DNA from: a virus
IMG/VR virus record: IMGVR_UViG_3300044956_000810
Location: 1 to 22,974 of that record
Reading direction: 5' to 3' (one strand)
Length of the DNA: 22,974 nucleotides
Both the position numbers and the translations under genes were made by a program. Below the pieces are notes generated by a model, which had not been told where the DNA came from, did not search any database, and saw only the letters and a program-made list of their open reading frames with translations. Positions 3,239-13,425 of this stretch are shown piece by piece (position 1 is the stretch's first letter; every line of letters starts with the position of its first letter).

Positions 3239-3246
3239 TATTTATT
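3239..3246 (-). promoter_or_regulatory. T4-type late promoter, AATAAATA
   Basis: The octamer matches the T4 late consensus TATAAATA at 7 of 8 positions. It overlaps the gp17 stop codon (3245-3247). The core ends 6 nt before the ATG of the 815-aa gene, so the predicted transcript has a leader of about one base. Confidence 0.6.
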
Positions 3247-5266
3247 AGTGTGTGATGTAAATGGGCATGGGCATAATCCACTCATCTTCTCGTTCTTCAC
3301 GCATTTTATCATAGATTGAAGGATCCCACTCTTGTAGCATCATTATCATACGTAGTGCTAACAGCATACTACTGACTAAATCATCAGTCGAACCTGTCTT
3401 ACCTGAAAAACTAATACCTTTGGCTACGTAGGTTTTTAATTCGCTTATTAAAGGTTTACTATAGATTTTTAGCTTATCACTTTCTATTAGGTACTTCAAT
3501 TTGGCACAGATTGATATTTTGGCAGAGTGTGTAGTATTAAATCCTTTGCGGAATCTACGAATGTGTCCTTTTTTTATAGGTTCACTTAAGAAAAGTCCGG
3601 GAATAGTTTCTTCACCTATTTCTGTAATAGCCACCAGTGCTGCCTCACCTACAGCATTGTTTTCAATACTAAAATATAAGTTTGCTTGACTTCCTTGTTT
3701 CGCACACTCGTCATTGATATAATTGCAGATATCTCTTAGTATGCGTGCTTGACCTTGTATAGTTGTTAAATTATGCTGCCATTCTCCCGTTTGTTCAAAA
3801 CTTGGAATCTCTAAAATTTGTATAGCGGCAGGGTCTCCTCCTGTTCCAAGACTTGGATCTAAAGCAACAATATAAGTAGCTGTTGGTTTTATTTTTTTAT
3901 ACCAGCGGCATTGACCCATCTTCATATAGGGTTCTTTGCCTTCCAAATTAGCTAATTTTAAGCTGTTTATCAGTGTTTCATCAAAGACCAAAAATTCGCA
4001 GTTAGAAACTAATAAACCGTTGGCAAAAAATCTATGATTTTTTCCTACATTATATAGATCATATACTATTGCGATTCGATTGGTATCTTTTATACTGATA
4101 ACCATTTCTGTTCCAGAGGACGTTATAATTTTATGGTTAAGTGTTAGGTCCTTGGCAGATACTCTTCCCATTCCTTCTATAAAAAATTCATGGTCGTGTG
4201 TGGTTTCTATTTCTTGAGTTTCAGTTTGTACTTTAATAGTAGGTCTTTGACCTTTCCTGATAAGCCCGTCAAAATTGTTCCATCCTGAATCAGTCATAAC
4301 CTGCAGGTTAAGATTATTTTTTAAGTATTCTTCCACGAACAAATCCTTCCCCAACATTATCAATTCTAAATCAAATACGGTCAATAATTTTATATCGCCA
4401 TTGGGAAATTTAATTTTTAATTTGCTTTCCCCAGTTATACATTCATGCTCACGCTTGAATCGTTCTTCTCCAATACTTGCTCGCTCTATAGCAGCCCATT
4501 TTTCATCTCGTTCAGGATGTTCGCTCCAATGTGCTCTAAAAGGAAAGAAGCCGTTTCTTCCCAGTTTTGTTGAATTGCCGTGTTCGTCAAATCTATAGCT
4601 AGCATCTTTCCATATAAGAGCGAATTGATCTTCATCTGAGTTAGGAGTTGATGTTAATATAGCCTTTCCACCTGTGGCCAATGTAGGACGTATTGAAGTC
4701 CAAAATTCCGCAGCAATGCTAGGTTCTACAAAGGCAAACTCGTCAGCATACAATAAAGAGATACTCATACCACGTCCGGTAGTTTCTGTAGTTGTTTGTG
4801 CTACTATACGACTGCCGTTGTCAAATTCAATACTTTGTTTATTATAACTTGTGACACCGCATCTGATATGATCAGGACACAACTCATAAGAATATCTAAT
4901 ACGCTGCATAATTTCCTGCGCACCGGTATATTTGTGTGCCGCTACCAATATTGTGCTGTCAGGTATGAACATAGCAAACCATAATAGATATCCTGCTGCT
5001 GTAGTGGTTTTACCCGTTTGGCGAGGTAGTAGGTTGATATTGAACCTGTGATTATGATAACTATCAACTAAACGTTTTTGATAGGGATATGCGTTATACT
5101 TGAGCTTACCACGAACAGGGTGCTGAATATAGAAAAAATTACTAAGAAAATAATGTGGTCCATTAGTTTTATCCTGACAGGCCAACAGATTATCTATCTG
5201 CTCTTCTGTCCATTTTTGCTGAACATTAGCATTTTTAACTAATTTGTAATCCTTAGGAATTGCCAT
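3245..5266 (-). CDS. 17: Terminase large subunit gp17 (packaging ATPase/nuclease), interrupted by an intein
   Basis: This is the motor that drives DNA into the prohead and cuts concatemers. The ATPase domain shows Walker A PRQTGKTT (81-88), Walker B LLYADE (171-176, acids D175 and E176) and a TSTPN coupling motif (205-209). The RNase H-like nuclease domain follows with acid D470 in VALDPS, E535 in SIENN and D628/D629 in TDDLVSS. Residues 276-422 are an in-frame mini-intein; removing it rejoins REHE to CEFL and leaves a 526-residue protein, slightly shorter than T4 gp17 (about 610). The ATG is chosen because a late-promoter core lies four bases upstream and a terminator lies just before that; there is no Shine-Dalgarno sequence. 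Unlike in T4, gp16 is not adjacent: two other genes lie between them. Confidence 0.97.
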   Translation of the reverse strand: MAIPKDYKLVKNANVQQKWTEEQIDNLLACQDKTNGPHYFLSNFFYIQHPVRGKLKYNAYPYQKRLVDSYHNHRFNINLLPRQTGKTTTAAGYLLWFAMFIPDSTILVAAHKYTGAQEIMQRIRYSYELCPDHIRCGVTSYNKQSIEFDNGSRIVAQTTTETTGRGMSISLLYADEFAFVEPSIAAEFWTSIRPTLATGGKAILTSTPNSDEDQFALIWKDASYRFDEHGNSTKLGRNGFFPFRAHWSEHPERDEKWAAIERASIGEERFKREHECITGESKLKIKFPNGDIKLLTVFDLELIMLGKDLFVEEYLKNNLNLQVMTDSGWNNFDGLIRKGQRPTIKVQTETQEIETTHDHEFFIEGMGRVSAKDLTLNHKIITSSGTEMVISIKDTNRIAIVYDLYNVGKNHRFFANGLLVSNCEFLVFDETLINSLKLANLEGKEPYMKMGQCRWYKKIKPTATYIVALDPSLGTGGDPAAIQILEIPSFEQTGEWQHNLTTIQGQARILRDICNYINDECAKQGSQANLYFSIENNAVGEAALVAITEIGEETIPGLFLSEPIKKGHIRRFRKGFNTTHSAKISICAKLKYLIESDKLKIYSKPLISELKTYVAKGISFSGKTGSTDDLVSSMLLALRMIMMLQEWDPSIYDKMREEREDEWIMPMPIYITH
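4001..4441 (-). other. Mini-intein inside gp17 (147 aa)
   Basis: The intein runs from Cys1 (codon 4441-4439) to Asn147 (4003-4001), with Cys as the first downstream extein residue. Block A is CITGESKLKI. Block B has Thr81 and His84 in TTHDHEFF. A GRVSAKDLTLNHKI stretch precedes block F, YDLYNVGKNHRFFANGLLVSN in two parts (YDLYNVGKNH and RFFANGLLVSN). No homing-endonuclease domain fits in the short space, so this is a mini-intein. The usual penultimate His of block G is Ser146. Insertion is at the end of the ATPase domain, before CEFLVF. The Cys1, block B His, block F, terminal Asn and Cys+1 are all present, so splicing is expected; this is inference. Confidence 0.93.
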
Positions 5267-13062: not shown

Positions 13063-13086
13063 ACTTTGAAAAGGGAGAAAAAGGGC

Positions 13087-13425
13087 TTGACCAGAAAACT
13101 TTGTATAAAATGTTTACAAAGACCTGTGGCAATAAATTATTACAAAGATAATAAAACCTTTTATAGGTCAATATGCGACCATTGTTCTAAAAATAGAAAA
13201 CTAGGGTTATTCCTCTGGCAAAAAGCAGGGTATAAGAAAAAAAATTTCTGTGAAAGATGTAATATAACATCAAAACACAGCGAAATATTCTTTGTTCACT
13301 ATGTCGATGGAGACCCTACAAATTGTAGGTTCCCTAACTTAAAAACACTGTGCTCAAATTGTCTAATTACAATTGGCAAGGAAAATTCTAAATGGAAATC
13401 TAATAATATTCTGCCTGATTTTTAA
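13087..13425 (+). CDS. HNH-like double zinc-binding protein
   Basis: The protein has two Cys-x2-Cys pairs that could make one zinc site (CIKC near the N-terminus and CDHC) and two more that frame an HNH-like beta-beta-alpha unit (CERC, then VHYVDGDPTNC, then PNLKTLCSNC). The first catalytic-type His (VHY) and the Asn before LKTLC are present, but the last His that follows the second CxxC in active HNH nucleases is Leu. It may be a DNA-binding zinc protein or a degenerate homing nuclease. The start is a TTG at 13087 because AAGGGAG lies nine bases upstream and the predicted late transcript begins near 13068; another TTG at 13066 would add seven residues. It is encoded opposite to its neighbours and its 3' end overlaps that of gp1 by 26 bp. 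Confidence 0.8.
   Translation: MTRKLCIKCLQRPVAINYYKDNKTFYRSICDHCSKNRKLGLFLWQKAGYKKKNFCERCNITSKHSEIFFVHYVDGDPTNCRFPNLKTLCSNCLITIGKENSKWKSNNILPDF

What the first reader, a model, noticed from the sequence alone, without database searches (positions are those of the whole stretch)
4001..4441. Mini-intein in the packaging ATPase with Ser in place of the penultimate His
A 147-residue in-frame element with Cys1, block B Thr/His, block F and terminal Asn followed by Cys interrupts gp17 before CEFLVF. There is no endonuclease domain. The penultimate residue is Ser rather than the His that normally assists Asn cyclisation. Splicing must work for packaging, so this intein probably uses another residue (for example the block F His) or splices slowly. 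Slow or conditional splicing of the late motor could act as a timing switch, which is speculation.
Basis: partly seen in the sequence, partly recalled or inferred. Interest (0 to 1): 0.6.

Follow-up and report, generated by a model that had tools for sequence, protein, structure and literature searches.

The report
Re-fused split intein in phage terminase
A phage DNA-packaging gene carries a self-removing protein insert (an intein) whose unusual serine is normal for its relatives; the notable point is that the insert was once split in two by a DNA-cutting gene and has been joined again, keeping that gene's tail as a fossil in another reading frame.

Summary
Window 4001-4441 (-) encodes a 147-residue class 1 mini-intein in the terminase large subunit (TerL): Cys1, block B Thr81/His84, block F Asp128/His136, Ser146, Asn147 and Cys+1. 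It lies at REHE|CEFL. TerLs about 91% identical lack it exactly, and a confident model (pLDDT 94.8) has the intein fold. The proposed consequence (slow splicing, a timing switch) is not supported. Of 61 distinct same-site relatives in this clade, 42 have penultimate Ser and 19 Lys; the only His is in a distant outgroup. Purifying selection on relatives is strong. Npu DnaE, which splices in about 1 min, also has penultimate Ser. In 27 relatives, His is absent from both the penultimate and block F assisting positions.

The more interesting result is its origin. Most relatives are split: IntN (~31 aa), a free-standing HNH endonuclease gene, then IntC. The window form is contiguous, yet DNA at 4314-4349 reads EGFVRGRILKK* in another frame, which is the endonuclease C-terminus with its stop codon. 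It is therefore best read as a re-fused split intein left by deletion of the endonuclease gene, one of six scattered cases in the tree. IntC's old start signal (AAGGA-N7-GTG) survives inside the fused gene. Splicing itself was not tested.

The parts
3245..5266 (-). TerL (T4 gp17-like terminase large subunit) precursor gene, N-extein + intein + C-extein
   Evidence: ORF 673 aa; Pfam Terminase_6N/6C; T4 gp17 3ezk/3cpe E about 1e-43; relatives PA5oct etc.
4442..5266 (-). N-extein, 275 aa, ATPase domain, ends ...EERFKREHE
4001..4441 (-). mini-intein, 147 aa, class 1, no endonuclease domain
   Evidence: empty homologues
4439..4441 (-). Cys1, first nucleophile
   Evidence: Cys in all 56 relatives with a visible N end
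4190..4201 (-). block B Thr81-x-x-His84
   Evidence: invariant in alignment
4058..4060 (-). block F Asp128 (F:4)
   Evidence: VYD invariant
4034..4036 (-). block F His136 (F:13), candidate helper for Asn cyclisation
   Evidence: His in 35 of 62 relatives
4001..4006 (-). Ser146-Asn147, penultimate Ser and cyclising Asn
   Evidence: penultimate S 42, K 19, H 1 of 62
4314..4349 (-). fossil: out-of-frame copy of the C-terminus of the HNH homing endonuclease, EGFVRGRILKK plus stop codon
   Evidence: score 29.97 bits; true endonuclease tails average 28.9; next best of 3079 stop-ended 11-mers in the window 1.5; synonymous recoding null 0.00024
4334..4348 (-). relic ribosome-binding site and start of the formerly separate IntC gene: AAGGA-N7-GTG (GTG = intein codon 36)
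   Evidence: 51 of 55 split or eroded relatives have the same kind of start there
3245..4000 (-). C-extein, 251 aa, begins Cys+1-EFLVFDETL, nuclease domain

Best explanation
A functional class 1 mini-intein that cis-splices TerL by the standard four steps: N-S shift at Cys1, transfer to Cys+1, Asn147 cyclisation, S-N shift. Asn cyclisation does not need a penultimate His; here it is probably helped by block F His136. Penultimate Ser is ancestral in this phage TerL intein clade. The clade is mainly split, with an HNH homing endonuclease gene between IntN (~31 aa) and IntC. The window copy arose when a deletion removed that gene except its last 11 codons and stop and brought IntN and IntC into one frame, turning trans-splicing into cis-splicing. 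Shown by sequence: anatomy, exact empty site, clade-wide Ser/Lys, split relatives, endonuclease fossil. Inferred: splicing activity, the His136 role, the deletion as the event.
For: Anatomy and fold. Exact empty site in about 91% identical TerLs. 62 distinct same-site inteins: penultimate S 42, K 19, H 1, all with N|C; only 2 changes on the tree. IntC dN/dS mostly 0.03-0.17, including pairs with neither helper His (L139/L143 0.028, L148/L156 0.089). 45 relatives have an intact endonuclease-length gene between IntN and IntC; the two tested are HNH/NUMOD3. Fossil endonuclease tail with stop in window, L002 (22 residues), L115 and L116; null tests. Six fused copies need 6 separate changes on the tree. 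Lowest model confidence is in residues 31-40, the old junction.
Against: No splicing was observed by anyone for this clade in what I could read. The window intein has no close divergent relative, so selection on this copy itself could not be measured (L001 differs by 1 base in 6.4 kb). Two of six fused copies (L146, L157) lack a scoring fossil. The IntC tree has few columns and many open forks. The fossil DNA overlaps a relic ribosome site and start, which could also conserve it.
Confidence: 0.86

Rival explanations
1. Slow or conditional intein: penultimate Ser slows Asn cyclisation so TerL matures late, a timing switch.
For: Changing this residue altered precursor accumulation in one phage intein (PMC5050341); late-gene inteins as regulators have been proposed (PMC7156551).
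Against: Ser/Lys is fixed across the clade; Npu DnaE has Ser and is fast; in the phage case cited it was His that slowed splicing; TerL inteins tested in mycobacteriophages splice quickly.
Confidence: 0.07
2. Contiguous form is ancestral; the endonuclease gene inserted later into such inteins, several times or once, and its reading frame ran into existing intein DNA, so the tail motif was intein sequence first.
For: Contiguous to split is the usual assumed direction (own knowledge); the two frames overlap, so constraint is shared.
Against: L002 keeps 22 endonuclease-like residues (NNKQFKDGTQPEGFTRGRIRKK*) in the other frame; the PEG(F/Y)..GR motif repeats inside the endonuclease itself; KDLF lies upstream of the IntC start in split forms yet is kept in the window; fused copies are scattered.
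Confidence: 0.1
3. Dead intein: TerL works with the insert retained, or this contig is a defective phage.
For: Splicing not tested.
Against: All catalytic residues intact; open frame; flanks identical in layout to conserved empty TerL; strong purifying selection in the clade.
Confidence: 0.04

Closest known systems
AceL-TerL / GOS-TerL and the engineered consensus Cat (atypically split TerL inteins; PDB 6dsl)
   Same: Phage TerL inteins with a very short IntN (25-37 aa, PMC11766414) and the same kind of split point; CatC is a sequence and fold match
   Different: Window form is contiguous; CatC and the AceL-like locus L160 end VSH(N) with penultimate His, the window clade has Ser or Lys; about 21% identity
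VidaL intein (PDB 6vgv)
   Same: Best sequence and structure match in PDB, TM 0.84, E 1e-10
   Different: 23% identity; penultimate residue and exteins not compared here
Fractured genes of Dassa et al. 2009 (split inteins with an endonuclease gene between the halves); the MIJ3 PolB split intein (PMC6892783)
   Same: Relatives of the window intein have exactly this layout, IntN / HNH gene / IntC
   Different: Window copy has lost the endonuclease gene and been joined into one frame
Mycobacteriophage inteins without penultimate His (PMC5050341) and Npu DnaE (penultimate Ser)
   Same: Class 1 inteins with G, K or S before the last Asn that splice
   Different: Other genes or insertion sites; there the change is sporadic, here it is fixed across a TerL clade

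Membership tests
class 1 intein | Cys/Ser/Thr nucleophiles at 1 and +1 | tested here: met
   C1 and C+1
class 1 intein | block B TxxH, block F Asp/His, terminal Asn | tested here: met
   T81/H84, D128/H136, N147
class 1 intein | penultimate His (common, not obligatory) | tested here: not met
   Ser146; about 5% of functional inteins differ here (PMC4031507), so this does not exclude membership
class 1 intein | HINT fold | tested here: met
   pLDDT 94.8; Foldseek to VidaL and many inteins
class 1 intein | in-frame insert absent from homologues at an exact site | tested here: met
   72 empty TerLs aligned with insert length 0
class 1 intein | excises itself and ligates the exteins | not testable with these tools
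   needs expression or virion mass spectrometry
mini-intein | no endonuclease domain in the intein | tested here: met
   147 aa; no endonuclease hit
fractured-gene split intein | two separate polypeptides with an endonuclease gene between | tested here: not met
   window is one ORF; 45 relatives meet it
class 3 intein (WCT, Cys at F:4) | no nucleophile at 1, Cys at F:4 | tested here: not met
   Cys1 present, Asp at F:4

The most novel reading that the evidence does not exclude
Split inteins revert to contiguous ones repeatedly by deleting the endonuclease gene, and the window copy still uses the old IntC ribosome site and GTG start, so the same gene makes both a cis-splicing precursor and a free IntC-TerL fragment that could trans-splice.
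Probability: 0.12. Interest if true: 0.6.

Novelty: new variant of a known kind. Interest (0 to 1): 0.45.

Why it matters
It gives sequence evidence for the step from split back to contiguous intein, with a molecular fossil that points to the direction for this copy and a series of intact, eroded and fused relatives at one site. It also supplies a natural set of TerL inteins under strong selection that lack the penultimate His, and 27 that lack both usual helper histidines, which makes the question of what drives Asn cyclisation without His directly testable. The penultimate Ser alone is ordinary.

Tried and rejected
NCBIfam gave only sub-threshold intein hits. A scan of about 85,000 bacterial and archaeal species genomes found no relative of this intein clade, and isolate phages gave only distant inteins, about 27-32% identical. 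Selection on the window copy itself could not be measured because its one close match, L001, is nearly identical. My first recoding null cut off the stop codon and was redone. Considered and dropped: class 3 intein (no F:4 Cys), dead intein, slow-switch reading. The paper on fractured genes (PMC2677866) was not held; no paper on split-to-contiguous reversal was found in the held library, which is not proof of absence. A possible in-frame remnant of the extein copy at window intein residues 26-30 (ELIML) was too ambiguous to claim.

Full report
Observation. The TerL gene is 3245-5266 on the minus strand, 673 aa. An in-frame insert of 147 aa at 4001-4441 separates ...GEERFKREHE from CEFLVFDETL.... 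Terminase_6N and Terminase_6C match the two sides, and T4 gp17 is the nearest solved relative of the whole protein. The insert alone matches Pfam Intein_splicing at 8e-6, below that model's cut-off, and its best PDB sequence matches are VidaL, Spl DnaX, CatC and NrdJ-1 inteins and one bacterial intein-like domain. An AlphaFold2 model from a 24-row alignment has mean pLDDT 94.8, and the listed Foldseek matches are inteins or intein-like domains, VidaL first at TM 0.84. Catalytic positions are C1, T81/H84, D128, H136, S146, N147 and C+1.

Empty sites. TerLs up to about 91% identical (L004-L007) lack the insert exactly and read GEERFRREHECEFLVFDETL. Of 72 empty relatives, 69 have Cys at the +1 position and 3 have Val. 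The isolate phage PA5oct (54% TerL identity) is also empty.

The penultimate residue. A profile search of IMG/VR found 125 stretches encoding relatives, 80 kept. After removing duplicates, 62 distinct inteins sit at the same TerL site. All end in Asn followed by Cys, with penultimate Ser 42, Lys 19, His 1. The His belongs to L160, an AceL-like outgroup in a T4-like TerL. On the IntC tree the penultimate state changes only twice. The block F:13 position is His in 35 and Arg, Lys, Tyr, Asn or Gln in 27; 26 of those 27 have penultimate Ser and one Lys, so 27 lack both histidines. The search pattern used NHRF as one of two anchors, so F:13 His may be over-counted; the penultimate residue was not in any pattern. 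IntC pairs show dN/dS mostly 0.03-0.17, including pairs without either His; the one exception, L093/L096 at 0.5, rests on 3 differences. The window intein does have F:13 His. Reviews state that neither His is needed in all inteins and about 5% of functional inteins lack the penultimate one (PMC4031507); mycobacteriophage inteins have Gly, Lys or Ser there in some cases (PMC5050341); Npu DnaE, very fast, has Ser. The slow-switch idea thus has no support from the residue.

Split relatives. In L003, L008, L012 and others, TerL stops about 31 residues into the intein, an HNH/NUMOD3 endonuclease gene follows, and a second gene begins with IntC and continues into the C-terminal part of TerL. Among 62 rows plus the window: 45 split, 5 with an eroded endonuclease gene, 6 contiguous, 6 cut by contig ends, 1 outgroup. 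IntC begins at a GTG or ATG about 18 codons before the conserved Trp; 51 of 55 non-contiguous rows have a Shine-Dalgarno-like site just upstream, mostly AAGGA 7 nt before it, embedded in the endonuclease 3' end.

The fossil. In the window, the DNA of intein residues 31-43 (GKDLFVEEYLKNN) reads, in another frame, EGFVRGRILKK followed by TAA. That is the C-terminus of the endonuclease: 37 of 45 endonuclease genes of relatives end in a K/R-K tail of this kind, e.g. EGFSRGRIAKK*. Scored on a matrix from those tails the window stretch gets 29.97 bits; true tails average 28.9, and the next best of 3079 stop-ended 11-mers in the six frames of the window gets 1.5. If the intein protein is held fixed and codons are redrawn, 0.024% of draws reach the score; if the seven residues IMLGKDL (intein residues 28-34), at and just before the junction, are also left free, none of 50,000 does. 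L002, L115 and L116, three other contiguous forms, carry the same fossil; L002 keeps 22 residues of it. L146 and L157 do not score; L157 groups with the split form L154. The six contiguous copies need six separate changes on the tree. The simplest reading is repeated loss of the endonuclease gene with in-frame joining. Eroded cases (L093, L096, L126, L133, L100) look like intermediate stages.

Mechanism. By homology the intein splices by the class 1 pathway; with H136 present, Asn147 cyclisation can be assisted as proposed for other inteins lacking the penultimate His. This is inferred. The fused copy lost its own homing gene, so it is expected to be immobile unless an endonuclease is supplied in trans (inference). 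Several relatives show intein synonymous divergence far below that of their exteins (L086/L088 IntC 0.21 against 1.3-1.5; L104/L106 0.15 against 0.88), the mark of recent horizontal movement of the split elements.

What remains open. No splicing data exist for this clade in what I could read. The old IntC start signal survives in the window (4334-4348), so internal initiation is possible but untested. The direction split to contiguous rests on the fossil and on the scatter of contiguous copies, with a poorly resolved tree.

Verdict. The reported oddity is ordinary for inteins and for this clade; the re-fusion history is the part worth a specialist's time.

Noticed in passing
split loci such as L085, L090, L091, about nt 84-110 from Cys1: Right after IntN many split loci carry an out-of-frame degenerate copy of the C-extein start (E/K-F-I/V-I-F/Y-D-E), which supplies the IntN stop codon, so the extein start flanks the endonuclease-IntC unit as an imperfect direct repeat (up to 20 of 24 bases). 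Origin unexplained.
   Followed up: partly
L086/L088, L104/L106: Intein synonymous divergence is several-fold lower than that of the flanking TerL exteins, indicating recent horizontal spread of the split intein.
   Followed up: partly
L139, L148, L154 and others: 27 of 62 same-site inteins have no His at either the penultimate or the block F:13 position; tested pairs among them remain under purifying selection.
   Followed up: partly
window 13066-13425 (+): A 119-aa HNH-like ORF (PHROG 1571, E 5e-4) lies on the strand opposite to its neighbours, between a 993-aa ORF (tail-sheath-like by its sequence, not searched) and a dNMP kinase gene: a probable stand-alone homing endonuclease.
   Followed up: no
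L165, L166 (Providencia and Serratia phages): Annotated isolate phages have TerL split by an intein and a middle ORF (GIY-YIG/NUMOD3 in L165), with penultimate His (LTHN); some of the parts are annotated as hypothetical proteins.
   Followed up: no
L100, 589-nt insert: IntN reads on in frame into the remnant of the endonuclease gene (92-aa open frame ending in EGFVRGRFIKK*), an apparent intermediate of erosion.
   Followed up: no
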